The notes under the pieces are model-generated. The model was not told the origin of the DNA, did not search any database, and worked only from the letters and a program-made list of their open reading frames with translations. The translations under genes and the position numbers were made by a program. Source: Oscillospiraceae bacterium (GTDB taxonomy: Bacteria; Bacillota; Clostridia; Oscillospirales; JAAYXM01). Taken from it: DNA of 41,052 nucleotides. Position 1 is the stretch's first letter, and each line of letters starts with the position of its first letter. The DNA is taken from NCBI GenBank assembly GCA_017409405.1, contig JAFQSU010000083.1, positions 1-41,052 of the forward strand. The letters are read 5' to 3'. Shown here in pieces: positions 233-41,052 of the stretch.

Positions 233-261
233 AGAGGAGATGTGAAAATCACATCTCCTCT
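233..261. terminator. Terminator hairpin A, left copy (target duplication of mobile element copy 1)
   Basis: A 29-base palindrome with arms AGAGGAGATGTGA and TCACATCTCCTCT and a 3-base loop sits just after the stop at 216. The same 29 bases recur exactly at 518-546, on the other side of the element at 262-517. The ancestral single hairpin would have served as a bidirectional terminator between the converging genes ending at 216 and 557. Confidence 0.85.
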
Positions 262-517
262 CAGCGTGTCGATAACCCTATCGACACGCTGAGAGACTGT
301 CCAAAAAGGTGTGAGATTACCCGAATGGAACCCGAAGGCGTATGTGTATACTCCGAGAGGTGACATTCGGGCAAAATAAGCGGAAAATCCCTTGAAGTTC
401 GACACTTCAAGGGATTTTAATATGCGTGCATTTGCTTTTGACCAATGTTTGTTTTACGAAAAAACTCTCTTTAAATTTTTCCTCCGCTTATGCTCTCACG
501 CCTTTTTCGACAGTCTG
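262..517 (-). mobile_element. Miniature inverted-repeat element, copy 1 (256 bp)
   Basis: This block matches, in reverse complement, the blocks at 39902-40158 and 40914-41052. Read on the minus strand it begins CAGACTGTCG and ends CGACACGCTG, so its outer ends are imperfect inverted repeats (CAGACTGTCG against CAGCGTGTCG). A second inverted repeat lies inside: AGACTGTCCAAAAAGGTG near 294 against a matching AGACTGTCGAAAAAGGCG on the other strand near 500. Between 262 and 291 is an internal hairpin with arms CAGCGTGTCGATA and TATCGACACGCTG. Another strong hairpin (arms AAAATCCCTTGAAGT and ACTTCAAGGGATTTT) lies near 385-419. It encodes no transposase, so it is a non-autonomous element mobilised in trans. 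An exact copy of the host terminator hairpin flanks it on each side. Confidence 0.85.
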
Positions 518-546
518 AGAGGAGATGTGAAAATCACATCTCCTCT
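518..546. terminator. Terminator hairpin A, right copy
   Basis: This is an exact duplicate of the 29-base hairpin at 233-261. On the minus strand it lies 10 bases past the stop of the AraC gene at 557-1471 and should terminate that gene. Confidence 0.8.
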
Positions 547-4461: not shown

Positions 4462-7400
4462 ATGAAAAACAGGCGAGTTATATCTCTGCTTCTTGCGCTT
4501 TGCATGGTACTTTCATACATTCCGTCATCGCTTGCGGCAGACGGATTTGAGGGTGAAACCTACACATATGATTTCACATGCACGGCGCTGGGGCTTTCGT
4601 CGCAGGTTGCCCATCTCGCACAGACGAACACGACAACGGCGACAGACGGGCATTATTACACATCGCAGAATGCGTACAAAAATTCAAACAAGTGGGTGCT
4701 TGTTTCACGCAGAAGCGGATACAGCGGTTTTACACGTACCGTGTTTATGGACTTCACTCTGTCGAGTGCAGGAACGCTTCCGGCAGCAAACACAAATAAC
4801 GGCTTCATAATAAAGCTCAACGTTCCGACAACGGGCAAGTTTTCGCCGAGCCTTTCATACAACAAGCATGCAAAAGGTATGAAGCTTAAACTGTACCTCG
4901 TGCCGGTGGAGACCGAGGGGTTTGAAGCATCAAAGATTGCCCTTGCTCAGGAATCAACACCGTATGTTTCTACTGCTATTGACCTTGCAAAGGCAGCAGG
5001 GGATGCGTACTACCTCGGTGAGGTGGACACCTACACCAACGCTTCAGATTCCGTTCCGGCAACGCTCGCAACAAAGAATTTAAACGGTGGAGATTACTGG
5101 CTTATATGTGAGATGAGTGGGCTTAACTCTGCTCTTACCAAAGCCGATACATATACTGTTCAGCTTAAGAACTTTGTGCTCCGTGAGCTTCCGGGTATGA
5201 AGGTTACCTTTGAGAAGAACGCATATGTTCTTGGTGTTGGCGGCAGTGATACTGTTGTTGCCACTGCAAGCGATGATTCGGGCATCGTAAACGGTGCGGA
5301 GTTTGTATTTGAAAGCACTGATACATCTGTTGTGACTGTTGATGCAGACGGAAAAATAACGGCACACAAGGCAGGCAGTGCAAAAATCAAGGCTACCGTA
5401 AAGAGCACAAAGTACGCAGAAAGCGTGCAGGTCATAGTAAAGGCGGCAGGTGATACCGAGGTCGCAAATAATGAGTACAAGCTGCATTCGGGTGTTCTTA
5501 AAACTGATTTAAAAAACACTGTAATAAAATCAGATTATGCGGCAGCGCTCAATTACAACACGCTTGACACCACAACAGCACCGTGGGCGTACAACGCACA
5601 CGCAGGAACAACAACTTTTAACCTCACAAATACAAGGACGATGGTAGAGGTGAAGAGTGCTTCGCTCGGCAGTGCGTTTTATGCAGTTAAGGTGAGTGTC
5701 GCAAAGGGCGGACTCTATGATATGGATGTTTCGTTCCTTTCGCACAAGTGGGGTATAGGTGCAGATGTATATGTGTTCCCGACATCAGAAATTACCGGGA
5801 ACACCGTCAAGGTGGCTGACCTTACAGCCAAGACGCCTTGCGGAGATATCGACACCTACGCATCGGGCGGTAACGGAACGACCACTACGGCGACGGATTA
5901 TGTCGGCAGGGTTAACATCCCGGATGCAGGAGACTATTATGTTGTAATCTTCTTTAAATCAAATGCAGCCGGAGTATGGGATACTGCACGTTCATCGCAG
6001 TATGCATACCTTACGGGAATTACTCTGCGTGAAACCGCACCGTCCGTAACTGTGTCCTGCCTCGATTTGATTGAGGTAGGAACCCCTGCTTCCGTCAGTG
6101 CGGTAATGAAGGATATCGACGGAAACATAATAGCAGATGCAGAGATTACATATAAAAGCTCGGACGAGAGTGTTCTTTCTATTGAAAACGGAGTTGCAAC
6201 CGCACACAAAGAGGGCAACATTACAATAACGGCGACAGCCGTAGACAACGGCACGAAGCTTTCCGCAAAGGGAAGTGCGCCCGTTGAGATAATAGACCCC
6301 AATGTTGAACTGCCTGAGCACAATTATGTATTTACATATCATGCTCTTGGCGTAGACTCGCAGGTTTCTCAGGAGGGACATGTTCCGCTCGGCGATTATT
6401 ACAGTACCTTTGATACGTCAATATCGTCCAAATGGGCGTTTGCAGGAAGACGTGCAAGCTATCACGGCTATTTCAGAGACACCTACGCCGATTTCTCTCT
6501 GGCGGAATCCGACGTAGACAATCACGAAACAATGGCTCCGGGATTTTTGTTCAAGATTCAGGTGGAAAAGACCGGTATATATACACCGAAGCTTGAATAC
6601 AACATTCAGGATTTCGCACTGCGTGCGGATATGTATCTTGTTCCAGTAACCGAGGGCGGTATTTTTGCCCCCGAAAAGGTTATAGGTCACAGCAACCCTA
6701 ACGTTGCCGCTGCGGTAAAGGAGCTTCGCAGCAGTGACAAGTGGCACATAGGAACGGTTACTACATATTCCTCGAAGATTCCGGATGTGTATAAGAACGT
6801 ATACCTCAAAAAGGGGGACTATTTCCTCTTCTTTGTTCCCAATGGAAGCACGTATATGGGCTCAAGCGGCAGATATTATCTGTATCTGAGAAGCTTTTCA
6901 CTTAAGAACCCGACTGTTACCGTTGATGTGGAAGGAAAGGATTCTGTCGGTATCGGTGATGAAATGCAGCTCTCATGGACGGTAAGAGACCCTAAGGGCA
7001 ACATTATTCCTGATGCAGAGGTTACATTTGAAAGCTCTGATACAAAGGTTTTGCGCGTTGATGTCCAAACCGGTGCAGTTACGGGCGTTGACCTCGGAGA
7101 GGCAACCGTATACGCAAAAACGGTTATCGGCGATAAGGAGTATACGGGAAGTATAGATATTTCAACGTATGTTGTACAGTTTGGAAGCATCAAGGCAGAG
7201 GCCGCTCCCGTTGAGGTAGGACAGGGAAATGCAACGGAGATTGTTCTGACAGGATACCTTACCAACGGAGAGGAGACCGACATAAGCACAGCGAGAAAGG
7301 TGTTTAGCTCAAAAACACCCGAGATTGTCGAGGTTTCAGAAAACGGAATTGTCACTCCGCTTCGTGCAGGTAAGGGCGAGGTTGAGGTTGTTGTTATAAA

Positions 7401-10400
7401 AGACGGAATCGCCGCAACCACAACTGTCGAAATAACGGTCACGGACAGCAGCAAGCTTTCATCGCTCACACTTACGGGTGCCGATGAGGTAGGATATCTC
7501 CGTGATGCGACACTTACCCTTACTGGTGAAATGTCAAGCGGATATGGTGCAGACATAAGCGCTTTCGATGTTAAGTGGGAGCTTACCGCTGTGGAGAACG
7601 GCGAGGGTCAGGTAATTGACGGCGGAATCGTTCTCGAAGACGGCGGCAAAGTCTGCGGAATAACAAAGGGCGCGTGTGCAACCGTTTCTGCATATGTTGA
7701 TGTTGAGGGAAATATAATCCGTTCAAACACGATTAAAATTACCGTAGGCGAAACCGATCTTCGTGATTTCATGGTAAACTTCAAGGAGACGAAGGAAAGC
7801 AACCACAAGCTTATAAAGCTTGAAAACGAGGGCTGGGAAATCGACTATGCGAAGTCGTTTGCAAACATATCTCCGCAAATGTACAACTTCGGTATGTTTG
7901 TTCACACAAACGCACCGGGGCAGAAGCTTGTTATACGCATAGATGTTCCGTATACAGGCGTTTACAACGTTTCGTTCGACGGAAGAGCATACGGAATAGA
8001 GGGTGCGGAGGATATCGACATATATGTTGACGGAACATATGTCGGTGATTACGCGTTCTATGACAGAGGTCTTACGATAGCAGGTTCCGTTAAAAGCCTG
8101 CGTACGGTTTACCTTGAAAAGGGCGTACGTGAAGTAACCTTTGTTGTAGGAGATAAGAACGAAATTTCAGGAAACTACAGATTCATTCCGTCCACAATGC
8201 GTTTTGCGGCAAAGTACAGGATGCCTGCAATCCGTGAGATAATAACGGATAAGGAAGAAATAACCATAGCAAAGGGTGAGAGTGAGAATTTGGGAACAAA
8301 GCTTCTCACCGATGACGGTTTTGTTTACGAATGGGAAAAGGCTCTTGATGGAGAGGCAGACCCACTCACTGAGGTGACATATTCCGTAAACGATGAGGGA
8401 AAGGATGTTCTTTCAGTAGATGCTCTCGGCAACATAACTGCGCTTTCTGAGGGAGCTGCAACCGTAACCGTAACGGTTACATCAAATAAGGGCACGTCCG
8501 ATGTAACAACGAAGACGAAGGAAATTCCCGTCACGGTAGGAAGCGAAATTCCGACAGCGGATAAGGTGTTATCTGTCATTGAGATAACTCACGGTTCACT
8601 TGTTATGAGTCTTAAGAGTGATGGCATAACTCTCGGCTTTGCCGGAAAGAACAAGCTCGGCAACGAGGTTGCAATCCCCGATGGTGCAACCGTTGTATGG
8701 GAAAGCAAAAACGAAGATGCTGCTACCGTTTCTGGCGGAAAGGTAATACCGCACGGCTACGGCACGTCAGAAATTACGGTGTCGGTAACTCCTGACGGCG
8801 GTGAGACGATAGTGTCAAAGCCAATAACCGTATCTGTCAGAGAGGGAAAGACAAAGCGCACATATTATACTCAGAGCAAGGTGGATGCGGCGCAAGACAA
8901 TATCGGAAAGTACGACTGGGCGAAAAATATTCAGAAAGCGGCGGTTACGGCAGCTGATAATTATTTCGACAGAAGCCTTGATGAATGGTGGAAGATGATT
9001 CCGTCAAACGATATTCCGCGTGCTACAACCGTAGGAATGAGCGGAGACCCGGATGCATATATATGCCGTTACTGCAAAACCAATCTCAAGCAGGAATACA
9101 GCGTATATCCGTGGATTGTAGACCCGTTCAACAATCCGTGGAAGATACAGTGCCCTGAGTGTAAGCGACGCTTCCCGTCAAACGACTTTGCTTCGCTTTA
9201 CAATCTTGTTGTTGAGGAATACGGAGAATATAACGTAGAGCTTGCACACAAAATGAACGACGAAATTGTCGAAAAATCCGGCGGAAGTATTGACTATCTC
9301 AAAAACACGGCGTATCCCGAGGTCGGAAGCGCAGGTTCTCTCGTAAAGCTTACCGGCAAAGAAACCGTTGAAGGTTGGGGCGTTGACGACGGTCTCGGTT
9401 ATGATACCGGCAGAGTGTATTCAAACGGGACGAAAGAGATTCATACATATCTTGCATACTTTGTGCATTTCGGATACTGGTACAATTATGGGACAAACTC
9501 CGCTCAGATGATACAGGCAATAAACACTCTTGCAGATGCTTATATCTATACGGGCGATGAAAAGTACGGCAGACTCGGCGCAATTCTCGTTGACCGAATT
9601 GCAGACCTGTATCCCGACTATGAAATTGAGCCGTGGAAGAATCTCGGATATTACAATCAGGGCGGAGCGCGAGGCAAGATACTCTATAATATCTGGGAGT
9701 GTGCCCTTGCAGAAGATCTTGCAATTGCATACGATGCGCTATTCCCTGCATTTGACGATCCTGAGGTTATCGAGTTTGTTTCCGAAAAGGCGAACAGATA
9801 CGGATATACCGACAAGCTGACCGATGTTTCCGACGGTGAGGGTACGGTAAAGAAGGTAACGGGCGAGACTCTCAGAAGCAATGTTGAAAACAACTTCTTA
9901 AGAGAAATTTTCGACGCTGCCCAAAATTCAAAAATAAGAGGCAACTTCGGCTTCCACCAGTCTACCGTAGCGGCTGCAGGTGTTGTCCTTGACACGCAGC
10001 CGGATACAAATGCAATGCTCGACTGGGTGTTCAATAACGGAAGCTCGGGCGATACCTACAATACAGGCGGAAACATCAGTGAATCCTTGATTGATCTCGT
10101 ATCGCGCGACGGTCAGGGTAATGAATCCGCTCCGTCCTATAACAGAATATGGTTGACAGAGCTTGCAGCTCTTGCCGATATTCTTGCGGAATATGACGCC
10201 TATAAGGGCTTTGATATCTGGAATAATCCGAAGTACTTTACTATGTGGCGCTCATATAACCCGATGACGCTTGTAAGACGCGGCGTTGCTCCGATAGGTG
10301 ACTGTGGCCTCACGGGAAGCTTTGAAGCATATCCCGACAGCCCCGAAGGCTTGCTTGAGGCATACAGACATGCAAAAGAACTCCACGAGGACACTGCGGT

Positions 10401-13152
10401 TGAAATAGCACAGCTTTTCTATCAGCTACATACGCTCACCAACAAAGATGTCAAGGGAATCCATTATAATATATTTACCGAAAACCCTGAAAGCGTCGAG
10501 CAGGAGATAGAGGACATAATCGAAACACACGGAGAATATCCCGATTATGACAGAAGTTCAATGCTCACCGGCTACGGCTTTGCAGCACTTCGCGCAGGAA
10601 CTCTGCACGAAACGGTGGGTGCAGATGTAATCAGAGATACAACCCGTGACTTCTGGATGTATTTCGGAGGTGCTGCATCGCATTCACATTACGATACACT
10701 CAATATAGGCGTTGAAGCATACGGCATAAGTCTTTCTCCCGATAACGGATACCCCGAACAGACAGGACACGACCCGAACAGAGCACAGTGGACGAACCCG
10801 ACACTTTCCCATAACGCAGTTGTCGTGAATGAGGTGTCACAGCTTAAAAATCAGTTCCCGGCAAAGCCTCTGCATTATGACGGGAAAGACACACGCGTAA
10901 AGGTTATGGATGTCGATGCATCTGATACATATATTGAAACGGATGAGTATCGCAGAACTGTGGTAATGGTGGACTATGATGACGAAATTTCTTACGGTAT
11001 CGACTTCTTTAAGGTACGTGGCGGAAATGACCACCTGTACTCCTTCCATGCTGCAAGTGAAGAAGTGTTTGACTGCTCGGAGGAAATCGACTTCTTTGAA
11101 CAGCCGGGCGGTTCGTATGCAGGCATAGATGTTCCGTTTGGCAATGATCCGCAGACGAATCAGAGTTCGTCATATGTAAAGCTCAAATATCCGATAGGCT
11201 ACACATGGCTGTTTGATGTGCGGCGTGCAGACAATCCGGGACTTTCTGAGTTCTTCGTCGATTATAATATAATTGATATGCAGAACTATTCGCGGAACAA
11301 TAAAAAGATGGATATACATCTTCGCATGACCATGGTAAACGATTTTGAGCCTGACGAGATTACGCTTGCAAAGGGCTATCCTCCGCGCAAACCTAAGAAC
11401 CAACAGTATCTTGATTATATGCAGTATATGCTTGTGCGTCGTAAAGGCCGTGACCTTAACACTCTGTTTACGACAGTTATCGAGCCGTATAATAAAGAAC
11501 GCTATATAAAGGAAATTAAGCCTGCGACCGTAACCGCTTCTGAAGATACGGGAACGGACAAGGCATCTGCTGTCAAGGTTACGCTTGCCGATGGCAGAAT
11601 TGATTACATTGTATACGCTCAGAATAACGATATCACATATACCGTAACTGATAACGAAACGGGTTACAGCTTTGCCTTCTCCGGATTTGTCGGAGTGTGG
11701 ACGGTAAAACCCGACGGAAACGGCGGATATGTGAACGTATACAGCTACATAAACGATGGAACGACGATAGGCGAAGGCGAATTCCTTGTTGACGGAAAAA
11801 GCGCATCAATAAAAGGATGTGTTACAGATTTTACGGTAGAGCCTGCATTTGACAACTACATTGATGTGGAGTTTAACCGCACGCTCTCGGATGAAGAGGC
11901 ACAGAGCCTTGTTGACTGCATGATAAATGTCGAGTCTGAAGAACCGGGCAACGCTGCATACGTAATAAAAGACGTTCTCAACTTTAACGGTAACAGCGCT
12001 CGCCTTGATATAGGTGCAGTAACTACCGTGAACTCATATAAGGACAGGAGTAATATCAATGGTGGCTACAATTATGACATAGCTGCCGGGAAAGCCTTTG
12101 AGATTGCCCTCTCATATGAGGAGAACGGCGCACCTAAGCTTTCAGACCCCGGAAAGCAGAGTGTAACTGCAGGAAGCTCAATTGCGGTACAGCTTACAGC
12201 AACGTCTGATGACGGACCGATAATGTTTGAACCGCGTACAATACCGAGAGGTGCAAGCATTGATAGCAACACAGGCAAATTTACATGGAAGCCGGATGCA
12301 TCTCAGGTCGGAGATAACCTCGTAAGCATAGATGCTGTTGATGTGCTTGGCAGAAGAACTACACAACATTTCACCGTAACCGTTTACGGTGCAACAACCG
12401 GTTCACCATCACAGAGTGAGGACGGCACGGGTTCAACTGATACCACCGATACACCGTCCGGCGGCGGTGGTGGCGGAGGCGGCGGTGGCGGTGGTGCCGC
12501 ACCTGCCCCCGATACGGACGAAAATGTAGGAGACGATGATGAAAGCCTTCCCCTTGAGGAGAAGGTGCCGAGCGAAGGCGAGGCGGATGAGGTGGAAAAT
12601 GGCGACACGGCAAATATCCGATTCACTGACCTCGGAGACCACGCCTGGGCATCCGATGCAATCAACGAACTTGCGAAAGCAGGCATCATCAAGGGAACAA
12701 GTGAGACCATGTTCTCACCTGCTGCCAATATAACGAGAGCTGATTTTGCACTGCTTCTTGTCAGAGCGTTCAATCTTGAATCCGACAATACCGAAAACTT
12801 CGCAGACGTAAGCGAGACCGACTACTTTGCCGCTGAGCTTGCAATAGCCCGAAATACGGGAATAGTCGGCGGAATAGGTGATAACAAGTACGCACCGAGA
12901 AGCACCATAACCCGTCAGGACATGATGGTAATAGTATACCGAGCTTTGACAAAGCTTGGAATGGAGTTTGCAATAGAAGAGGTTGATTATCCTGATATTG
13001 AAGCTGTTGCACCGTACGCAAAGGATGCGGTCAAAGCGCTTATAACGGCAGGCTTAGTCAACGGCAAAAACGGACTTGTCGAACCTGCAACATACACAAC
13101 CCGTGCAGAGGTTGCAGTACTTGTCAAAAGAATACTGGACTATGTAAACTAA
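4462..13152 (+). CDS. Giant cell-wall-anchored heparinase II/III-type polysaccharide lyase, 2896 aa
   Basis: A signal peptide (MKNRRVISLLLALCMVLSYI, then PSSLAA) is preceded by AAAGGAG. Residues 30 to about 1450 hold three type A or A-like modules (about 35-250, 340-525, 617-815) alternating with Big_2-like Ig domains, then a CBM-like segment (about 1105-1260) and more Ig domains. The lyase occupies about 1475-2540. It has a four-cysteine ribbon, CRYC at 1535-1538 and CPEC at 1564-1567 followed by FPSND; the motif NESAPSYN near 1894; HSHYD at 2074-2078; and SHN at 2116-2118. The H-x-H-x-D plus HN pattern is the heparinase II/III hallmark. A putative-Ig domain (about 2555-2650, WKPDASQ) leads to a 12-glycine and acidic linker, then three SLH domains (2719-2896) that bind secondary cell-wall polymer. 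It probably cleaves a uronate-containing polysaccharide by beta-elimination at the cell surface. The substrate is not deducible. Confidence 0.9.
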   Translation: MKNRRVISLLLALCMVLSYIPSSLAADGFEGETYTYDFTCTALGLSSQVAHLAQTNTTTATDGHYYTSQNAYKNSNKWVLVSRRSGYSGFTRTVFMDFTLSSAGTLPAANTNNGFIIKLNVPTTGKFSPSLSYNKHAKGMKLKLYLVPVETEGFEASKIALAQESTPYVSTAIDLAKAAGDAYYLGEVDTYTNASDSVPATLATKNLNGGDYWLICEMSGLNSALTKADTYTVQLKNFVLRELPGMKVTFEKNAYVLGVGGSDTVVATASDDSGIVNGAEFVFESTDTSVVTVDADGKITAHKAGSAKIKATVKSTKYAESVQVIVKAAGDTEVANNEYKLHSGVLKTDLKNTVIKSDYAAALNYNTLDTTTAPWAYNAHAGTTTFNLTNTRTMVEVKSASLGSAFYAVKVSVAKGGLYDMDVSFLSHKWGIGADVYVFPTSEITGNTVKVADLTAKTPCGDIDTYASGGNGTTTTATDYVGRVNIPDAGDYYVVIFFKSNAAGVWDTARSSQYAYLTGITLRETAPSVTVSCLDLIEVGTPASVSAVMKDIDGNIIADAEITYKSSDESVLSIENGVATAHKEGNITITATAVDNGTKLSAKGSAPVEIIDPNVELPEHNYVFTYHALGVDSQVSQEGHVPLGDYYSTFDTSISSKWAFAGRRASYHGYFRDTYADFSLAESDVDNHETMAPGFLFKIQVEKTGIYTPKLEYNIQDFALRADMYLVPVTEGGIFAPEKVIGHSNPNVAAAVKELRSSDKWHIGTVTTYSSKIPDVYKNVYLKKGDYFLFFVPNGSTYMGSSGRYYLYLRSFSLKNPTVTVDVEGKDSVGIGDEMQLSWTVRDPKGNIIPDAEVTFESSDTKVLRVDVQTGAVTGVDLGEATVYAKTVIGDKEYTGSIDISTYVVQFGSIKAEAAPVEVGQGNATEIVLTGYLTNGEETDISTARKVFSSKTPEIVEVSENGIVTPLRAGKGEVEVVVIKDGIAATTTVEITVTDSSKLSSLTLTGADEVGYLRDATLTLTGEMSSGYGADISAFDVKWELTAVENGEGQVIDGGIVLEDGGKVCGITKGACATVSAYVDVEGNIIRSNTIKITVGETDLRDFMVNFKETKESNHKLIKLENEGWEIDYAKSFANISPQMYNFGMFVHTNAPGQKLVIRIDVPYTGVYNVSFDGRAYGIEGAEDIDIYVDGTYVGDYAFYDRGLTIAGSVKSLRTVYLEKGVREVTFVVGDKNEISGNYRFIPSTMRFAAKYRMPAIREIITDKEEITIAKGESENLGTKLLTDDGFVYEWEKALDGEADPLTEVTYSVNDEGKDVLSVDALGNITALSEGAATVTVTVTSNKGTSDVTTKTKEIPVTVGSEIPTADKVLSVIEITHGSLVMSLKSDGITLGFAGKNKLGNEVAIPDGATVVWESKNEDAATVSGGKVIPHGYGTSEITVSVTPDGGETIVSKPITVSVREGKTKRTYYTQSKVDAAQDNIGKYDWAKNIQKAAVTAADNYFDRSLDEWWKMIPSNDIPRATTVGMSGDPDAYICRYCKTNLKQEYSVYPWIVDPFNNPWKIQCPECKRRFPSNDFASLYNLVVEEYGEYNVELAHKMNDEIVEKSGGSIDYLKNTAYPEVGSAGSLVKLTGKETVEGWGVDDGLGYDTGRVYSNGTKEIHTYLAYFVHFGYWYNYGTNSAQMIQAINTLADAYIYTGDEKYGRLGAILVDRIADLYPDYEIEPWKNLGYYNQGGARGKILYNIWECALAEDLAIAYDALFPAFDDPEVIEFVSEKANRYGYTDKLTDVSDGEGTVKKVTGETLRSNVENNFLREIFDAAQNSKIRGNFGFHQSTVAAAGVVLDTQPDTNAMLDWVFNNGSSGDTYNTGGNISESLIDLVSRDGQGNESAPSYNRIWLTELAALADILAEYDAYKGFDIWNNPKYFTMWRSYNPMTLVRRGVAPIGDCGLTGSFEAYPDSPEGLLEAYRHAKELHEDTAVEIAQLFYQLHTLTNKDVKGIHYNIFTENPESVEQEIEDIIETHGEYPDYDRSSMLTGYGFAALRAGTLHETVGADVIRDTTRDFWMYFGGAASHSHYDTLNIGVEAYGISLSPDNGYPEQTGHDPNRAQWTNPTLSHNAVVVNEVSQLKNQFPAKPLHYDGKDTRVKVMDVDASDTYIETDEYRRTVVMVDYDDEISYGIDFFKVRGGNDHLYSFHAASEEVFDCSEEIDFFEQPGGSYAGIDVPFGNDPQTNQSSSYVKLKYPIGYTWLFDVRRADNPGLSEFFVDYNIIDMQNYSRNNKKMDIHLRMTMVNDFEPDEITLAKGYPPRKPKNQQYLDYMQYMLVRRKGRDLNTLFTTVIEPYNKERYIKEIKPATVTASEDTGTDKASAVKVTLADGRIDYIVYAQNNDITYTVTDNETGYSFAFSGFVGVWTVKPDGNGGYVNVYSYINDGTTIGEGEFLVDGKSASIKGCVTDFTVEPAFDNYIDVEFNRTLSDEEAQSLVDCMINVESEEPGNAAYVIKDVLNFNGNSARLDIGAVTTVNSYKDRSNINGGYNYDIAAGKAFEIALSYEENGAPKLSDPGKQSVTAGSSIAVQLTATSDDGPIMFEPRTIPRGASIDSNTGKFTWKPDASQVGDNLVSIDAVDVLGRRTTQHFTVTVYGATTGSPSQSEDGTGSTDTTDTPSGGGGGGGGGGGGAAPAPDTDENVGDDDESLPLEEKVPSEGEADEVENGDTANIRFTDLGDHAWASDAINELAKAGIIKGTSETMFSPAANITRADFALLLVRAFNLESDNTENFADVSETDYFAAELAIARNTGIVGGIGDNKYAPRSTITRQDMMVIVYRALTKLGMEFAIEEVDYPDIEAVAPYAKDAVKALITAGLVNGKNGLVEPATYTTRAEVAVLVKRILDYVN
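12460..12495 (+). repeat. Poly-glycine coding tract in giant lyase 1
   Basis: Twelve consecutive glycine codons (GGC/GGT/GGA) form a simple GGN repeat between the Ig-like domain and the SLH region. The 3607-aa lyase has eleven at 36140-36172. Repeats of this kind can change length by slippage, which would change the spacer between the enzyme and the wall. Confidence 0.85.
12541..12595. repeat. Intergenic-type palindromic repeat embedded in the linker of giant lyase 1
   Basis: The minus strand reads CCACCTCATCCGCCTCGCCT, then TCGCTCGGCACCTTCTCC, then TCAAGGGGAAGGC. This is the look of the short palindromic repeats found between genes in gut Clostridia. Here it lies inside the reading frame and encodes LPLEEKVPSEGEADEVE. 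A nearly identical block sits at the same place in the second lyase (36215-36269). That it is a genome-wide repeat is inferred from memory of such sequences. Confidence 0.5.
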
Positions 13153-25952: not shown

Positions 25953-26005
25953 ATACAGAAATCCGCTCGCTGAATTAAATGGCACGACTTACCAAGGAGG
26001 TATAT

Positions 26006-29000
26006 ATGAAAAAAAGAATTTTATCTTTGATACTTTCGGTTTGTATGCTCGTCTCGCTTCTGCCGATAAACGCTCTTGCGGCGGTTGTTCCCGAGTCTGC
26101 ACCGATAGTTCCGATTGAATATGATATATCGACAAATGCGCTTACCGAAGCGGCAAAAGCGACTAAGTACGATAACAACACGCTCGGTCTTGTCAGCTGG
26201 CTTGCAAAGGGCAGTGCAGAAGCGGCGACTCTCGATGTGCCGGCAAAAACTGCTGCATATCAGATGACGAACCGCATCGGCAGTATGAAGGATAACAGCC
26301 CGACACTTCTTGAAAAGGGCTTTTCATCGCAGTTTGTTGTCGATGCATGGAGTGATGTAGGAGGAACTCCGACCTTCTCAAACCATGCAGACCATTCAAA
26401 CTACACGAAGGGTCTTATAGTATACGGCGTCCGTCTTAAGGTTCCGGCAGGAAAATACACACTTTCATTAAAAAACGACTTTGCAATCGGTGATGTTGCA
26501 AACACCTTCAAGTCAAACGGTGCTTTCACCAAGGGCGCGGTTACCAAGGTGTATTTCGGCAAGGCAGAAACTAATGCATCTTCATCGTCAGAGGCTTTCT
26601 CTGCCGCAAAGGCAGTTGTCAGCGAAGACAACTACCTCGGCTGGTACAGCTCTATGGATTTGTCACAGACAACATCCTATGCAAAAGAGCTTACGGTTTC
26701 GGAAGACGGAGAGTATTTCGTGACATTCGTGGCAGATGCCGACAGCCTTACGAAGAATGGCGACTGCTATTTCAGAGATACGGGCTGGGCATTCCAGCAG
26801 TTTTATCTCTCCGGCATCACCCTCACTCCCGTTCCTCCGGAAGGATATATCCTCTATGATGAGGCAAACTACGACATTACGTCAGGTGCGCTTACAGATA
26901 CGGCACTTACGGATCACGGTGCAGGTGCAAGCTTTGACGGAAATGAGCTCAGTAAGGTCAGTTGGCTTGCAAAGGGAAGTGTTGCAAATGCCGCACTTGA
27001 CCTTACAAAGACTGACGGCTATGAGCTTGAAGCCCGTAAAGGCGGCTCGACTGATACAAGTCTTACACTGGGTAACCTTGGCTTTAACGGCAGATTTATA
27101 AGCGAATGGCGTGACAAGGATGCAACTACGGGAGCGATAAGTGAACCGACAAACGGATATTGTCGTGAAGAATCTCCGTATGTCTATGGAATTAAAATAA
27201 ACGTTCCGAATGACGGTGAATACACACTCTCACTTAAAAACAACTACACGTCCGACGATATCGACAACTCATATAAGGTAAAAGGTAAGTTTGCGCGCGG
27301 TGTTGCCGCAAAGGTAACACTTACAAGAGTACAGCCGGCTGATGTTGCGACCTCGGCAGCACTCGGACAGGCAGCAACGAACCTACAAATTAAAAACGCA
27401 CTTGCGGCTTCTTCAAGCACGCACGAGCTTGGCTGGTACGACTCTACAAAGCTTGCGATAGATGAGAATACGCCGTATATAACAGATTTTGACAAGAAGT
27501 TAAAGCTTTCTGCAGGTGAATATTTCGTAGTCTTTGAAGCAAACACCGAAAGTCTTGAAATCAATCCCGAAGAGCTTACTGTCAATGATCAGGCAAAGGC
27601 ACAGTTCTTCTGTGTTTCGGGCATTTCGCTCCGCAGTGCTCTTCCGAAGGCATATTCGGGATATACTGCGGTCTATGACCTTACGTCTGCAAGCGACTTT
27701 AAGACCGCGACATATGAAAAGACTAACAACCTCTGGCAATTTGCAGGTACAGATGCGGATAACGCTTCTTTCACCACGGGTACAAACTCCGTTTCGTTTG
27801 ATATCGGCACGGAAAGTTTTGCTGAGGTTGAAATCAACGTCCCGGTAAAGGGAAGATACAGAATAAACTTAAGCCACGAAAAGGCAGACCTCGGAGCGGT
27901 AGGCGCTGTGTATATCAACGGCGAAAAGCTCGGCACGGTTGACTACTCAAAGGCAAGCGGCGACAATTACGTTGGCACCTATGAGTTTGAGTCTGCCGGC
28001 AAGTATAAGGTTAAATTTAAGGCAGAGGGCGGCATCGGAACGGCACAGACCCCCGGCACGCTTACTCTCTACGGTGGTGGAAAGCGCGCACTTGTAAATG
28101 CAGAGCTTTCGCTTTCTGACAATGTTCTCTCCGTTTCGAGAGCATGGCTTTCCGACGGCAGTGAAGCTGATGCTTCAAAGCTTTCTGTAAAGTACAGTAT
28201 TGACGGTACGGCATCTGCTGAAATTGACAAGAACACGGGCGTTATTACGCCGAAGGTCAACAGTGAATTCACAACGCTCTATGCAACGATTTCGCTTGAT
28301 GGAGTTTCAGTTGACTGTGAGCTTTATGCAAATGTTGTTAAAGACTTGCCCGAGTCGATGAAGGGGAATATTGACACCATTGTATACAACATCACGTCTG
28401 ACGTTCTCTGGAGTGGTGCTTTGGGCACCGACAACAGCGGAGATGATGAAACTAAGGACGCATACGACACTCAGACTGCAGACGACCTCATATCTAACAA
28501 CGAGCTCGGATATATAAGCTGGCTTGCAAGACTCAAAAACCCTGAGCCGGCGCTCGATCTCACAAAGACGGCTCCGTATCAGCTCGGATACCGTCTCGGC
28601 GGATCGGTTGACAACAGCCCGGCACTTTATGTAGAAGGTTTTGTTTCACAGTTTGTCGTAAAGCAGTGGAATCCCGGCGATGACATTACTACGGCGGAGC
28701 CCATACGCGACAACTACGGCACAAAAAACAAAATTTTATATTCAATCCGCCTTAAGGTGGACGAGCCGGGCAAATATAAGCTCGCACTTAAAAACAGCTT
28801 CACGAAGGACAGCACAAGGATTCACACGACCTTCAGAACTGACGGCGAGTTTACAAAGGGCGCAGTTACGCAGGTACACTTTGCAAAGGCAAAGGATGCC
28901 GCGGCGGACAATGCATACACGACTCCGGCAAAGGCGGCAGAATCCCTTGACGAAAACGCAGTCACACTCGGTTGGTACGACAGCCGAAGACTTGCACAGA

Positions 29001-32000
29001 ACGCAAACACTCCTGCAGTAACCGAGTTTGACACTGTTCTCGACATTGCCGAGGCAGGGGAGTATTACGTCTACTTTGAGGGCAATAACGAAAGCCTTGA
29101 GAAAAACTCCGATGTATACTACAGAAATGATGGAAACAATAACTCATGGTTTCAGCAGTTCATGCTTTCGGGCATTGAACTTGTGCCTGTACTTCCGACA
29201 GGATACTCCGGCTCGACTGCGGTATATGACCTTACTGTCAGCGATGTCTTTGAAAATGCAACGTATGATAATACGGGTAAGTTCTGGGCATTTAAGGGAA
29301 CGGATGCGCAGAGTGCGGTCTATAACGTGAGCGAAAATGCTGTTTCCTTTGATGTCGGAACTGATGCTTACACAGCGGTAGAAATCAACATTCCGGCAAG
29401 CGGTAAATACAGAGTCGGTCTTGACTATGCTACAAGCCCGGACGGCGGTGTCGGTGCGGTTTATGTTCTTGACCCGGGAACTTCTGACATTGCCGCATCC
29501 CTTTCGGACTCAACAGAGCTTGGTGCAGTTAACTACCATGCTCCGCAAAAAGGAACGGGAACAACGGTTCTTGGTGAATACAGCTTTACAGTGCCCGGAA
29601 AATACATCGTTGTATTCAAGTATAAGAGCGGCACAGGTACACTTCAGTCACCTAAAACAATCACACTTGACGGCGGCGACAGTAGTGACGTGCTCATGGA
29701 TATTGAACTCAACCTTTACGGCGAACAGATTGTTGTAAACGGCATTCTTACAGACGGAACTGATGCAAACCTCACAAACGCTGACATCACCTACAGAATT
29801 TCTGACGGGGCATCCGCAACCGTTGATTCGCTTACAGGTGTTGTCACACCGGTGCTTGAAAGTGAAGATACAACCGTTTGGGCGGAGGTTACGCTTGACG
29901 GTATGAGTCTTAAAAAAGAGCTTGCGGTAAAAATCAAAAAGACCGAATACTCAAAATACACGCTCACATACGATTTTGCAACCGTTGACGGTGTGACGGA
30001 CGGCCACAAGATTACCTATGGCGACACGATGCGCTTCTGGGAATTTGAAGCTGAAAACGGTGATTTTGCAATAAGCAAGCAGAGCTACGGTTTGCGTGCC
30101 GATGCAGTTCCCGGAAACTGGTTTGCACTGAAGTTTTACGTTCCTGCAGTGGGAACATACCATACCGAGCTTCTTCGCTCCACCGCGTCATACGGCGGCG
30201 ACAGTGAGATGTACGTCCTTCCGGCAGGCGCGGACATTGAGTCAGCAATAAACGGTGGAAGTGCAAAATATCTCGGCGAGATAAAGTCATATTCAGCTAT
30301 GTTTGGTGAGAACACACTGCAGCTTCTTGACAATATCACGTTTGATACAATAGGAGAATATATCGTGGTATTCCGCTCAACAGATGTAGGCGGCAAGGGA
30401 CAGTCAAGCATCATGCCCGGAAAATTAAGCTTTGTCGGCGGTGGAAATCCGGCACTTACAAGTGTTATCACCGATCTTGATGAGGTTGTTGTAAACGTTG
30501 GCGCAAGCAGAGTTCTCACGGTTATTCAGAGTATGCAGTCTGACTATGTAGCGGCATTTGAAAGTGCATATGACGTTACATTTGAAATAGAGAACACGGA
30601 TATCGCAAAGGTATATGATGACGGAACTGTCGCAGGCCTTGCGGTGGGAGAGACTACACTCACCGTTACTGCTGTTATGGGAGATACGGTAGCAGTTAAG
30701 AGTCATAAGGTAAAGGTGCTTCCTCGCGGCTATGCAGGCTACACCTTAAAGTATGATTTTGCAAATGTGCCCGTATTTGAAGAAACAACCTATGAAAGCA
30801 CGCACAATTTCTGGCAGTACTACGGCTCGGATGCCGACTGGACGGCTGTTGAGGTAAATATTCCCGAAGCAGGTAAATATGCACTAAGCACAGATGCAGG
30901 CTTTAGCGGTGAAATTTACATAGGCACAACGGTTGACAATGTTCAGGCTGTCAGCGGTGAATGCGCATTTGCGACAGCAGGAAGCTATCTTGTTATGTTT
31001 AAAAACTCCGGTGGGGCAGTGCCCGAAACGCTGACGCTTTACGGTGGTGACGGCGCAGTCCTCATGGGTGTCGACGTTGCATATGCAGATTATATGGCTT
31101 ACGTTTCAAACGCATACATGTCCGACGGCACAAGTCTTGATGTGACAAAGGCTGACATAATGTACAGCATTGCTGACTTTGAAAAGGGTGCTGTAATAAG
31201 CGAAAACGGTAAGGTATTCCTTGCTGACGGAGGAAAGACCTCCATTTTCGCCGACGTCACCTATGAAGGAAAAACAGTTCGAGGTGAGGTTTCGGTTGAC
31301 CTTCCGGCGGCAGACCCTGATACCATGAAGGCAAGCGGTGAGTCGGTTCTCTACAACCTTGTAAAGAGAAGCACAAGCTGGCAGGGACATAACGGAAACA
31401 AGACATACATCGGATATATAACCTATGATATGACCGACGGGAACTGGGAATGGTACATGACCGATAAATCAAACCCCACAACCATGGCTTATTCCTCCCC
31501 TCGCGTTGATATTACAGGAAACGAGCGTCTTGAAATCAATCTTGATGCAAACAACTGGCTTGCACTTAAGATCAAGGTTCCGGCAGAAGGCCGTTATTGG
31601 ATAAACGAAAAGTCCAGCCGTACATCAAGATTAAAATCATTGTATATTGACACAGGTAAGCTGTTCTTTATTCCGGTAGGTGCAAGTATTGAGGAAATTG
31701 AAGCTTCACTCACGCCTGAGACAATGGCAGGTAAGATATCATATCTTGATAACTCACTTGATGCGTGGACAGTTGTGTCTGAAGATTTAGGCTCGGTATA
31801 CTTCCCTGAAGCAGGCGAATACCTTATGGTATATCAGGAAGCACTCGGCCTCAATGCAAAGCGCGTAGAGCCGATTGACGTATCGCTCGACGGTACAAAC
31901 CGTGTCCGCTTCCTTGATATTGAGGTTGATGGCGGAAGCGAGCTTGCGGCAGGCAGTGAGGCAGACCTCGCTATCCGCGCAAGGCTTCTTGACGGCACGC

Positions 32001-35000
32001 TCATAGACGGTGCCGATGCAACAGATGTAACATACAAGTGGAGCTCAAGTGATGAGAGTGTTGCAAAAGTATCTGACGGCAAGCTCGTTGCAGTCGGCGA
32101 CGGTACGGCACTCATCACGCTTGAAGCTGTATATCCGGACAACGTTACGGTAAAAACGGTTGAGAGAATAAATGTTATTGAGTCTGCAACTGTTGTTGGT
32201 ATCGAGATTGTCGGCGACAAGATGGGGTTTGTTGACCGTTATATTCCGCTTTCCGTAAACCTCGTGTTTGACACGGGCACAACAAAGGCACTAACAGGCA
32301 CGGCTGTCATGTATGCCGCAGAGGGTGACGGTGCAGACGTTAAGGGCAATTCCGTATCAAGCTCAAAGCCGGGAACAATCAAGGTGTCGGCAAGCGCGAT
32401 ATATCAGGGGGCAGAGTACAATACGGAGACACCCCTTGAAATAGAGTTTAAAGCGCACACAATGAAGAGTGAGCCGAGCTACTATACCTACGACAGGCTC
32501 GCGGCACTCCGTGAAAATGCAGAAAAGTACGACTGGGTACAAAGTCAGATTAAGAGTGCTAAAAAGTCCGGTGATACAGCTCTTGAAAACTTCGACCGTA
32601 TCTATGAGATGCTTATCCCCGAGGGGCTTCCGCGTGCAACGCGTCCGGCACTCCGTGAGGATCCGGAATATAATCTTTGCCATTACTGCGGCGCAAATGT
32701 CAGCATGTTTGGTGATTTCACCATGAACATGTACACGAATCCGTGGAAAATACAGTGTCCCGATTGCAGGCGAAACTTCCCGTCAAACGACTTTGGAAGC
32801 TTCTATAAAATCGGTCTTGACGAGCACGGCTACTTTGACGTTACACGTGCACGTGAGCGCCATCACAATATGCTTACTCACGGATCACTTGATGCAGTCT
32901 GTGACTGCGTAGATATACCGATCGAGGAAAAGAGCGATGCGTGGTATGACTTCTACGGCTACGGCGACCCCAACGGTTATCTCTACAATGAGGCGTATAC
33001 CGAGCTTTGGGCAGACAGCTCAAAGGATACTTATAACAAGGACCCGTACAAGGGTGTCGAGGTGGATGGAGCACGCTGGGGTGTTGATGACGGTTGGGGA
33101 TATGACACCGGCAGAATTCACCCGAACGGAGTAGCGGAGGTTCACACATATATTGCGACCTATCTGTATGTAGGAGCAGTCAATGAGGTGAACTATGCAA
33201 TACGTAACCTTGCCCGTGCATACGCATATACCGGCGAAGAAAAGTATGGCATTCAGGGAGCAATTCTCCTCGACAGACTTGCAGACGTTTATCCCGACTA
33301 TTCAACGCATCTGTTCTTTGATAAGGGCTTTGCGACAGGCGGCGGCGGTACAGCCTACGGTAAGGTAAAGGGAACGATAGGTGATTCGTCATACATCATG
33401 TATCCGCTTGAAGCAGCAGACGCGTTCTTCCCGTTGCTTGTCAATGAAAACGAAACACTTCTTAAAGCGCTTCAGGAAAAGGCGAAGGAGTTTAATCTCG
33501 AAAACCCAAAAACAACAGGCGAGCACGTCTGGCAGAACTGGGCAGATGGTATCGTACGCGAGACCTTCCGCGCAGCAAAGTCAGCGGATATTTACGGTAA
33601 TGTCGGTTATCAGGAACGCGCAGTATCTCTCGCAATTTTGGTGCTTAACTCAAAGCCCGAAAGCGATGAGATGGCAGAATGGCTGTTTGCGACTGGCGGC
33701 AGAATAACGCGCGACGACGGCACTTACTACTGCCCGGGCGGCAACCTCGGCGCAATGATTATGAATGTCCTCGACCGAGACGGCAATGGTAACGAATCTT
33801 CACCGTCATACCACTCTGGTTGGGTGCCGATGCTTCAGTCGTGTGCAGAATATCTGAACATGTATACCGATGACCCGAAGTATAACTTGTTCAAGAATCC
33901 GAAGTTTGCGCAGCTGTTCATCTCGCAGATTCCTCTTGTTCTTGTAGATGACCACACTGCACAGATAGGTGATACCGGTTCTCCGGCAGATAACGAGATT
34001 CAGCTTTCAGCAAGCAGCAGTGCGTTTATGGAGCTAAAAGACACACCGCTCGGCAATATTATTGCAGAAGAGCTCTACCGTGAAAACGGCTACACTGCGG
34101 AAGGACTTCGCTATGATATGTTCACGCATGACCCGGAAAGGCTTGAGCGAGAGGTTCTTGAAAGAATCGACCTCGGCGATGGTATTCTCCGCGAAAGCAC
34201 GATGCTTACGGGCTATGGCTTTGCAGTACTTCGTGACGGTGCCGAGAACGGTGACAAAAACACTGCGACGTATACCAACAATATGCGTGATTGGTGGATA
34301 TACTTCGGTTCAAATCAGCATCAAATGTCGCACACGCATAAGGATACGCTCAACCTCGGCTTTGAGGCATACGGTCTGAACATGGCACCGGATCTCGGAT
34401 ATCCCGAGGCAACGGGCGCAAACCTTAATCGCTTCCAGTGGATAAGACAGACTATTTCACACAATACCGTTACAGTAAACGAAACTGCGCAGATATATAA
34501 TCAGCGAAAGCTCGGTCCGATGCATTTTGACGATTCCGGCGACATAAAGCTTATGGACATCGACGGTCACATGGCGTACGACGCAACGGATATCTACCGC
34601 AGAACTCTTGTTTCGGTAAATGTCGGTGCAGATGTTTCCTATGCGGTTGACTTCTTCCGTGTAAAGGGCGGTCATGACCATATTTACAGCTTCCACAGCC
34701 AGTCTGATGAGATTTATGAAACAGTAGGACTTGACAATATCGAGTATCAGACGGATAACGGTAGGGCAGACGGCAACTATATCGGTTCGTATGCAGGTGC
34801 GGATGTAAAGTTCGGCGACGATCCGAGCCTCAGTTCAAGTAAGTTTACTTACCCCGGCGGCTATACATGGATGAAGAATGTGCGCCGTGATACAAGCGGA
34901 GTGTCAAGCTTCACGGTTGACTTTAACGTGACCGACTTCAGAAAGGTGCTTAAGGACGGTAAGGACCTTCATCTCCGCATGACGATGCTAAATGACGGCT

Positions 35001-39877: not shown

Positions 39878-39901
39878 ACATGGACTCGTACGAGTCCATG
39901 T
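39878..39901 (+). terminator. Terminator hairpin C, left copy
   Basis: This is a perfect 24-base palindrome (arms ACATGGACTCGT and ACGAGTCCATGT). It is repeated exactly at 40159-40182 on the far side of mobile element copy 2. Confidence 0.85.
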
Positions 39902-40158
39902 CAGACTGTCGAAAAAGGCGCGAGAACATAAGCGGAGAAAAAAATTAAAGAGAGTTTTTTCGTAAAACAAACATTGGTCAAAAGCAAATGCACGCATATT
40001 TAAAATCCCTTGAAGTGTCGAACTTCAAGGGATTTTCCGCTTATTTTGCCCGAATGTCACCTCTCGGAGTATACACATACTCCTTCGGGTTCCATTCGGG
40101 TAATCTCACACCTTTTTGGACAATCTCCCAGCGTGTCGATAGGTTTATCGACACGCTG
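39902..40158 (+). mobile_element. Miniature inverted-repeat element, copy 2 (257 bp)
   Basis: It starts CAGACTGTCG and ends CGACACGCTG. It equals the reverse complement of copy 1 apart from scattered substitutions and one extra T near 40002. The terminal hairpin with arms CAGCGTGTCGATA and TATCGACACGCTG (one change in the loop-proximal part) is at 40129-40158. An open frame from 39988 to 40194 (VSNFKGFSAYFARMSPLGVY and onward) crosses it and has a counterpart in copy 1. I regard it as non-coding chance because it begins without a ribosome site and ends in flanking DNA. Confidence 0.85.
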
Positions 40159-40182
40159 ACATGGACTCGTACGAGTCCATGT
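40159..40182 (+). terminator. Terminator hairpin C, right copy
   Basis: This is an exact duplicate of 39878-39901, followed at once by a T tract (TTTTTT), which makes it a textbook intrinsic terminator. The T tract is only at this copy, so the original hairpin with its T tract lies here and the left copy is the duplication product, cut off from the T tract by the element. Confidence 0.88.
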
Positions 40183-40198
40183 TTTTTTACTTAAAGGA

Positions 40199-40227
40199 TT
40201 GAGTTTAGCCGTGGTATATGTTATAAT
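40199..40227 (+). promoter_or_regulatory. Vegetative promoter of the dfx-rubredoxin operon
   Basis: TTGAGT (40199-40204) and TATAAT (40222-40227) have the ideal 17-base spacing, about 97 bases before the desulfoferrodoxin ATG. The promoter lies just after the duplicated terminator, so the element has not separated it from its genes. Confidence 0.75.
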
Positions 40228-40323
40228 CTAAAAAGAACTTGATTCGGTTTATGGATAAAAAGAGCTTTGAACTCACATAAAAGAAAAAAGATTAAATATA
40301 ATAAGAATATTGGAGGTATTAAG

Positions 40324-40707
40324 ATGAAAGAAAAAAGATTTTTTATTTGTGAGCATTGCGGAAATATTGCAGAAAAAATTCACGATGCCGGTGTTCCGAT
40401 AGTTTGCTGCGGAGAAAAGATGTCAGAACTAAAAGCAGGAGTTGTTGAAGCCAGCCGTGAAAAGCATATTCCGGTTGTAAATGTTTCGGAAAATAAGGTT
40501 ACGGTTGTTGTCGGCGAGGTTTTGCATCCGATGACTGATGAACACAGCATTACTTGGGTTTGTCTTGAAACTGATCGCGGAAGCCAACTTAAGACATTGT
40601 CCGCAGGGGATGAGCCTACCGTTTCTTTCTTATTGAGTGATGAGACCGCAGTTGCAGTGTATGCATATTGTAACTTGCATGGTTTATGGAAAGTAGAAAT
40701 AAAATAA
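40324..40707 (+). CDS. dfx: Desulfoferrodoxin (superoxide reductase), 127 aa
   Basis: I start it at 40324, with GGAGG 7 bases upstream; the upstream ATG at 40267 has no ribosome site. The N-terminal desulforedoxin-like domain has four cysteines (C9, C12, C28, C29) for the rubredoxin-type iron. The C-terminal domain has the superoxide-reducing iron site: H48 (REKHIP, with the catalytic lysine K47), H68 and H74 (GEVLHPMTDEHSITW), and C116 and H119 (CNLHGLW). It is therefore a two-iron class enzyme, which reduces superoxide to hydrogen peroxide in the cytoplasm of anaerobes. Rubredoxin, its usual electron donor, is encoded 15 bases downstream. Confidence 0.95.
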   Translation: MKEKRFFICEHCGNIAEKIHDAGVPIVCCGEKMSELKAGVVEASREKHIPVVNVSENKVTVVVGEVLHPMTDEHSITWVCLETDRGSQLKTLSAGDEPTVSFLLSDETAVAVYAYCNLHGLWKVEIK

Positions 40708-40722
40708 CGGAGGTGAAAATAA

Positions 40723-40881
40723 ATGAAATATATTTGCGATGTATGCGGATGGGTATACGACGAAGCGGTCGGCGATCCGGATAACGGAATTGCTGCCGGC
40801 ACAAAGTTTGAAGATCTTCCTGAAGACTTTGAATGTCCGCTTTGCGGCGTCGGTAAAGATAGCTTCAGCCCGGAAGACTAA
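40723..40881 (+). CDS. Rubredoxin, 52 aa
   Basis: The small gene begins [20 protein letters not shown] and ends with DSFSPED. The two iron-binding loops are CDVCG (C5, C8) and CPLCG (C38, C41). The length is the family standard. An ACGGAGGTG ribosome site lies 7 bases before the ATG. It is an electron carrier and, in this operon, the likely donor to the superoxide reductase encoded just upstream. A hairpin terminator follows 6 bases after the stop. Confidence 0.96.
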
Positions 40882-40887
40882 AAAATC

Positions 40888-40913
40888 ACAGGAGAGACAT
40901 TTGTCTCTCCTGT
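40888..40913 (+). terminator. Terminator hairpin D after rubredoxin
   Basis: Arms ACAGGAGAGACA and TGTCTCTCCTGT enclose a 2-base loop. The third element copy begins immediately after its last base, as in the other two insertions. If the pattern holds, a second copy of this hairpin lies beyond the window. Confidence 0.8.
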
Positions 40914-41052
40914 CAGACTGTCGAAAAAGGCGCGAGAGCATAAGCGGAGGAAAAATTTAAAGAGAGTTTTTTCGTAAAACAAACATTGGTCAAAAGCAAA
41001 TGCACGCATATTTAAAATCCCTTGAAGTGTCGAACTTCAAGGGATTTTCCGC
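40914..41052 (+). mobile_element. Miniature inverted-repeat element, copy 3 (cut by window edge)
   Basis: It begins CAGACTGTCG and matches copy 2 with three mismatches over the 139 bases visible, counted by eye. It is in the same orientation as copy 2. Confidence 0.85.

What the first reader, a model, noticed from the sequence alone, without database searches (positions are those of the whole stretch)
233..546. Mobile element flanked by an exact duplication of a whole terminator hairpin
The element at 262-517 is bracketed by two identical 29-base stem-loops, and the direct repeats end exactly where the stem ends. At the other complete copy (39902-40158) the direct repeats are 24 bases of unrelated sequence, again exactly one complete palindrome. 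At the third (40914 onward) the element starts at the last base of a 26-base hairpin. The duplication length therefore follows the hairpin rather than a fixed number. Established knowledge: IS1630 of Mycoplasma fermentans (IS30 family) targets and duplicates inverted repeats of variable length. Inference: this is a non-autonomous relative of such an element in Clostridia, and it specialises in transcription terminators, a safe landing site that leaves a working terminator on each side.
Basis: partly seen in the sequence, partly recalled or inferred. Interest (0 to 1): 0.8.

Follow-up and report, generated by a model that had tools for sequence, protein, structure and literature searches.

The report
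Terminator-duplicating IS1182-type miniature transposon
A small transposon with dozens of copies inserts at the base of transcription-terminator hairpins and leaves a complete copy of the hairpin on each side; it is a stripped-down relative of the IS1182 family (not IS30), which probably recognises the folded shape of the DNA rather than a sequence.

Summary
The ~256-bp element has dozens of copies in its own genome and diverged relatives in two congeners. At 99 of 107 outer junctions a palindrome ends 0-2 nt from the element (22 of 6000 random window positions do so). The target duplication is the whole palindrome, centred on it in 49 of 55 measurable cases, 17-39 bp long, just 3' of genes, with an A- or T-tract outside. 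The IS30 inference is wrong: the own genome and congener G004 carry partners with the same 16-nt ends, the same hairpin-abutting insertion and an IS1182-family transposase start. Eighty related IS1182 loci from named Clostridia were examined and show the same habit. A natural empty site exists for a distant IS1182 element: Listeria plasmid pLM5578 has one hairpin, pLIS32 (flanks 100% identical) has two around the IS. Best mechanism: joining at the 5' feet of an extruded cruciform, so gap repair copies the whole hairpin; the cruciform step is inferred. Published IS1272 (same family) deletes the hairpin instead. 'A working terminator on each side' is only partly right: each copy keeps its T-tract only on the outer side. 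One end of the miniature element carries a hairpin that looks like a captured former target.

The parts
233..261 (.). Left copy of duplicated target palindrome (AGAGGAGATGTGAAAATCACATCTCCTCT), site 1
262..517 (+). Miniature element copy 1 (256 bp, no transposase gene)
262..291 (+). Left-end hairpin CAGCGTGTCGATAACCCTATCGACACGCTG; its first arm acts as the outer left terminal repeat; possible captured former target
294..309 (+). Inner (older) left terminal repeat AGACTGTCCAAAAAGG
501..517 (+). Right terminal repeat CCTTTTTCGACAGTCTG (reverse complement CAGACTGTCGAAAAAGG; first 16 nt as in the autonomous IS1182-type partner)
518..546 (.). Right copy of duplicated target palindrome, site 1
39878..39901 (.). 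Left copy of 24-bp palindrome ACATGGACTCGTACGAGTCCATGT, site 2
39902..40158 (-). Miniature element copy 2 (257 bp)
40129..40158 (-). Left-end hairpin of copy 2
40159..40182 (.). Right copy of 24-bp palindrome, site 2
40888..40913 (.). 26-bp palindrome ACAGGAGAGACATTTGTCTCTCCTGT downstream of the rubredoxin gene, site 3
   Evidence: rubredoxin PF00301
40914..41052 (-). Miniature element copy 3, cut by the contig end

Best explanation
The element is a miniature inverted-repeat element mobilised by a resident IS1182-family insertion sequence with the same terminal repeat (CAGACTGTCGAAAAAG). Shown: the transposase family of the partner, the shared ends, insertion at the base of terminator-type palindromes, and duplication of the whole palindrome whatever its length and sequence. 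[quoted passage not shown] On linear duplex these points lie 17-39 bp apart, but at the base of a cruciform they are next to each other, so one active-site geometry serves hairpins of any length. Filling the two single-stranded hairpin gaps makes two complete copies. Terminators are hit because they are the main strong, extrudable palindromes between genes, which also makes the insertions nearly harmless.
For: Junction statistics 99/107 against 22/6000. Duplications centred on the palindrome in 49 of 55; pairing 96-100% from the second base inwards, falling to about 38% three bases outside. 49 of 52 sites have a gene 3' end facing the hairpin, median 14 nt; A/T-tract test 85% against 13% for random positions. 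Same-ended autonomous partner in the own genome at three contig ends, each next to a palindrome, with the first 20-22 residues identical to the G004 transposase start. The G004 N-terminal 95 aa match NCBIfam IS1182 at 98.5 bits; full-length relatives score 397-403 against a cut-off of 270. 80 named Clostridia loci: exact palindromic duplications in about half, a different palindrome at each end in many others. Natural empty site in Listeria: one hairpin in pLM5578, two around the IS in pLIS32, flanks 100% identical. Orthologous rubredoxin loci of G003, G005 and G006 have no element, and G005 and G006 show a single hairpin there.
Against: No exact empty site is available for G000 itself, because one genome per species is held. 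The G000 transposase is collapsed at contig ends and only its start is seen. Mobilisation of the miniature element by that transposase is inferred from shared ends and shared target choice. The cut is not always at the outermost complementary base (69% and 62% of the first and second bases outside also pair), so the boundary is near, not exactly at, the end of self-complementarity. Terminator function is predicted, not measured.
Confidence: 0.85

Rival explanations
1. Non-autonomous relative of an IS30-type element such as IS1630, which binds the two arms of an inverted repeat and duplicates it.
For: [quoted passage not shown] four copies with 16-, 23-, 25- and 26-bp duplications).
Against: No IS30 transposase in G000, G003, G004 or G006; only two fragments below the family cut-off in G005, without these ends. 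Elements with these exact ends encode IS1182-type transposase.
Confidence: 0.03
2. The transposase recognises the palindrome as ordinary duplex, as a symmetric dimer with one subunit per arm, without extrusion.
For: A symmetric dimer would also explain duplications centred on the palindrome.
Against: Arm length, arm sequence and loop length (0-8 nt) vary widely while the cut stays within about 0-2 nt of the stem base; a duplex reader would have no mark for the outer end of the arms, and cuts 17-39 bp apart have no fixed spacing on B-form DNA.
Confidence: 0.25
3. The flanking hairpins are part of the element rather than duplicated target.
For: Nearly every copy carries them.
Against: Their sequence differs from site to site while the element is conserved (90-98% within G000); the Listeria empty site holds exactly one copy; orthologous loci in congeners hold a hairpin without an element.
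Confidence: 0.01
4. IS1272-like stem-loop replacement: the element replaces the target hairpin by its own.
For: Same transposase family; IS1272 and TnSha1 insert at terminators (PMC4923244, PMC5678879).
Against: IS1272 deletes the hairpin and makes no duplication; here two whole copies are kept.
Confidence: 0.02

Closest known systems
IS1182 family in general (e.g. ISEfa7 of Enterococcus faecium); review statement that some members target palindromic sequences (Siguier, cited in PMC4923244 and PMC5678879)
   Same: Transposase family (NF033551), type of ends, palindromic targets; ISEfa7-like, Listeria plasmid and Streptococcus phage copies read here also abut or duplicate a palindrome
   Different: Transposases only about 48% identical to the Clostridia group; the miniature derivative and its extra end hairpin are not described in the papers that could be searched
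IS1272 / TnSha1 (Staphylococcus, IS1182 family)
   Same: Targets terminator hairpins by structure, no sequence consensus; IS1272 also shows tandem duplication at its left end (PMC5678879)
   Different: Deletes the hairpin and leaves no target duplication; here the hairpin is duplicated. Wan et al. (PMC5678879) drew this outcome as a hypothetical pathway b
IS1630 (Mycoplasma fermentans, IS30 family)
   Different: Different transposase family; a convergent outcome
Group IIC introns (own knowledge) and REP-targeting insertion sequences (PMC1525189)
   Same: Use hairpins or terminators as landing sites
   Different: Different chemistry or target; no whole-hairpin duplication known to me

Membership tests
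IS1182 family | Transposase matches the IS1182 model above its cut-off | tested here: met
   Full-length same-ended relatives 397-403 bits, cut-off 270; the G004 partner is a fragment at 98.5 bits; the G000 partner is only 20-22 residues, 100% identical to it
IS1182 family | DUF772 plus DDE_Tnp_1_6 domains | tested here: met
   Both above cut-off in L157, L165, L170; DUF772 in the G004 fragment
IS1182 family | Shared terminal inverted repeats between miniature element and autonomous partner | tested here: met
   CAGACTGTCGAAAAAG in both within G000 and G004
IS1182 family | Mobilisation of the miniature element by that transposase | not testable with these tools
   Needs a transposition assay
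IS30 family (IS1630) | IS30-type transposase associated with these ends | tested here: not met
   None in G000; fragments in G005 below cut-off and without the ends
IS30 family (IS1630) | Duplication of inverted repeats of variable length | tested here: met
   a shared behaviour, not evidence of descent
IS1272-type stem-loop replacement | Loss of the target hairpin and no target duplication | tested here: not met
   Two whole copies at 55 sites; Listeria filled/empty pair
Miniature inverted-repeat element (MITE) | Short, multicopy, terminal inverted repeats, target duplication, no coding capacity | tested here: met
   254-258 bp full-length copies in G000, 90-98% identical to each other; no transposase in them

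The most novel reading that the evidence does not exclude
An IS1182-type transposase that senses DNA shape (an extruded cruciform) and joins at the 5' feet of both hairpins, giving a target duplication with no fixed length. In addition, its miniature derivative gained a new left end by capturing one of its own duplicated target hairpins, whose outer arm resembles the terminal repeat.
Probability: 0.45. Interest if true: 0.65.

Novelty: new variant of a known kind. Interest (0 to 1): 0.5.

Why it matters
Two groups of one transposase family end in opposite ways at the same kind of target: IS1272 deletes the hairpin, this group duplicates it. That makes the question of how a DDE transposase reads DNA shape directly testable with natural sequence pairs. 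It also documents a family of elements that use terminators as low-cost landing sites, and it explains much of the fragmentation of this draft genome, since many contigs break inside the element.

Tried and rejected
IS30 origin. PF13751 in the own genome found nothing because the transposase is collapsed at contig ends; PF05598 in the genus and then the 95-aa fragment found the partner. Rfam match of the element: only sub-threshold hits, taken as chance. L052 was dropped as a chance match without element body. The idea that copy L008 has a hybrid autonomous right end was dropped: it differs by a point change only. The idea that loop inversion between the two hairpin copies reveals the transposition chemistry was not adopted: there are at least six inversions in G000 (L005, L014/L043, L016/L034, L019/L030, L028/L048, L033/L047) but none seen in G004, G005 or the autonomous relatives, so later template switching inside the palindrome is more likely. 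The automatic labels overstate inversions, because A/T tracts outside the hairpin pair as well; the loops were read by eye. Phage records gave no empty site for the Listeria locus. The Siguier 2014 review could not be read.

Full report
Observation. The three window copies are as described. Copy 1 is bracketed by two identical 29-bp palindromes (233-261, 518-546), copy 2 by two identical 24-bp palindromes (39878-39901, 40159-40182), and copy 3 starts directly after a 26-bp palindrome and runs off the contig. The window's genome (G000, 1.94 Mb in 90 contigs, 88% complete) has at least 40 places matching the element and 54 exact occurrences of the 16-nt end. Many contigs start or stop inside it, so the assembly breaks at this repeat.

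Statistics. I took every outer junction in G000 and in congeners G004 and G005 and asked whether a palindrome ends there. It does, 0-2 nt from the junction, in 99 of 107; 6000 random positions of the window interior give 22. The eight exceptions include decayed or rearranged copies such as L006, L010, L017, L110 and the diverged L026. Full-length G000 copies are 90-98% identical to each other and 69-82% to the congeners' copies, so the rule holds across diverged lineages of the element at unrelated sites.

Partner element. The G000 genome holds three contig ends (C4, C11, C83) with CAGACTGTCGAAAAAGTCCAGCGAGAGCTGGGC placed directly after a terminator-like palindrome and followed by an open frame whose first 20-22 residues are identical to the transposase start of G004. 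G004 shows the same left end twice, next to GATGGGTTCAATCaaatcGATTGAACCCATC and another hairpin, with up to 95 residues of transposase, and the right end with AGCTGTGGCAGAATgtATTCTGCCACAGCT after it. The fragment matches the NCBIfam IS1182 model (98.5 bits over its N-terminus) and DUF772; full-length same-ended relatives score 397-403 bits against a cut-off of 270 and carry DUF772 and DDE_Tnp_1_6. No IS30 transposase is present in G000.

Generality. A scan of 84,980 genomes with an alignment of seven such transposases gave 80 loci from named Clostridia. Direct repeats, all but two of them exact, flank 42 of them by the first search. After re-registering the ends, 55 duplications (autonomous plus miniature) could be measured: 17-39 bp long, 49 centred exactly on a palindrome, pairing 96-100% from the second base inwards, 75% at the outermost base, 69% and 62% at the first two bases outside, then near 38%. 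They include complete genomes (Chakrabartyella piscis, Oscillibacter valericigenes, Claveliimonas bilis), so this is not an assembly artefact.

Terminators. Of 52 sites with enough flank, 49 have a gene 3' end facing the hairpin, median distance 14 nt, and 85% have at least five T after or five A before the hairpin within 8 nt, against 13% of random positions. These are the features of intrinsic terminators; termination itself was not tested. After insertion the left copy is followed by transposon sequence instead of its T-tract (2.3 T in 8 nt against 4.6 after the right copy). For a gene read towards the element, the first intact hairpin-plus-tract of the target is therefore the far copy. The pair insulates the element; it does not simply leave a working terminator on each side.

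Empty sites. For a related element (transposase about 48% identical, same type of ends) the Listeria plasmid pLIS32 carries the IS between two copies of AGACAGCCGCAATGGCTGTCT, while pLM5578 (flanks 100% identical) and pLIS40 (99.75-100%) have one copy and no IS. In the window's genus, the rubredoxin loci of G003, G005 and G006 lack the element, and G005 and G006 show a single hairpin after the gene.

Different hairpins at the two ends. Several loci have a perfect palindrome at each end but not the same one. In Thermocaproicibacter melissae (G198, identified through plasmid NZ_CP101828 of the same 19,378-bp length) a chromosomal copy and a copy on the 19,378-bp circle carry two hairpins in exactly reciprocal combination. 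This is what recombination between two IS copies would give; it suggests the circle was excised from, or integrated into, the chromosome by such a crossover.

Mechanism. The duplicated length has no fixed value, so the two joining points cannot be a fixed distance apart on duplex DNA. At the base of an extruded cruciform the two 5' feet are adjacent whatever the hairpin length. Joining there and filling the gaps yields two whole hairpins. Wan et al. (PMC5678879) sketched this as pathway b, and proposed joining at the 3' feet, with loss of the hairpin, for IS1272. Furi et al. (PMC4923244) also report hairpin deletion by IS1272. The present group therefore shows the other outcome in the same family. 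The cruciform itself is inference.

Left-end hairpin. In all three species the miniature element begins with a 29-30-bp hairpin (CAGCGTGTCGA...TCGACACGCTG) followed within a few bases by a second terminal repeat. That is the layout of any target junction of this element, and the outer arm matches the terminal repeat at 12-13 of 16 positions (read directly from the sequences). The simplest reading is that an ancestor inserted at such a hairpin and later moved with one of its two copies. An alternative is a palindrome formed by two abutting ends. Neither is proven.

Novelty. The transposase family, palindromic targeting within it, and whole-inverted-repeat duplication by another family are published. 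Whole-terminator duplication by IS1182-type elements with a filled/empty pair, the multi-species data, and the miniature derivative with an extra end hairpin were not found in the papers searched. The main insertion-sequence reviews could not be read here, and long palindromic duplications may be recorded in ISfinder, so the novelty claim is modest.

Noticed in passing
G000 loci L005, L014/L043, L016/L034, L019/L030, L028/L048, L033/L047: The loop of the hairpin is inverted in one of the two copies, while the stems agree. L020/L032 show a paired change in both arms as well. Probably template switching within palindromes after insertion.
   Followed up: partly
L044:1010-1075, L050:1009-1025, L051:1003-1019: Same terminal repeats next to palindromes but with unrelated interiors: other non-autonomous or truncated elements of the same system.
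   Followed up: partly
L157 and L164/L291 (Thermocaproicibacter melissae chromosome and 19-kb circle): Two IS copies carry two hairpins in reciprocal combination, as expected from recombination between IS copies that excises or integrates the circle.
   Followed up: yes
window 39902-41052: Desulfoferrodoxin and rubredoxin genes are bracketed by two copies of the miniature element in the same orientation, each with its own terminator hairpin.
   Followed up: no
window 4462-13152 and 25979-36829: Two giant open frames (2896 and 3616 aa) with S-layer homology, bacterial Ig-like and heparinase II/III-like domains: probably surface-anchored polysaccharide-degrading proteins.
   Followed up: partly
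L122:1-1815 (G004 C95): A different IS1182-type element with ends GGGGCTGTAGCAAAA and a 511-aa transposase; its target habit was not examined because it lies at a contig start.
   Followed up: no
L165-L170, both ends of the autonomous elements: The transposase frame ends inside or next to a hairpin just before the right terminal repeat, and another hairpin follows the left repeat, so the IS carries terminator-like structures at both ends.
   Followed up: no
L282:2350-2450 (E. faecium plasmid NZ_CP034945): An ISEfa7-like copy sits at an imperfect palindrome near the coding end of a BMP-family gene, so targets may not be terminators only.
   Followed up: no
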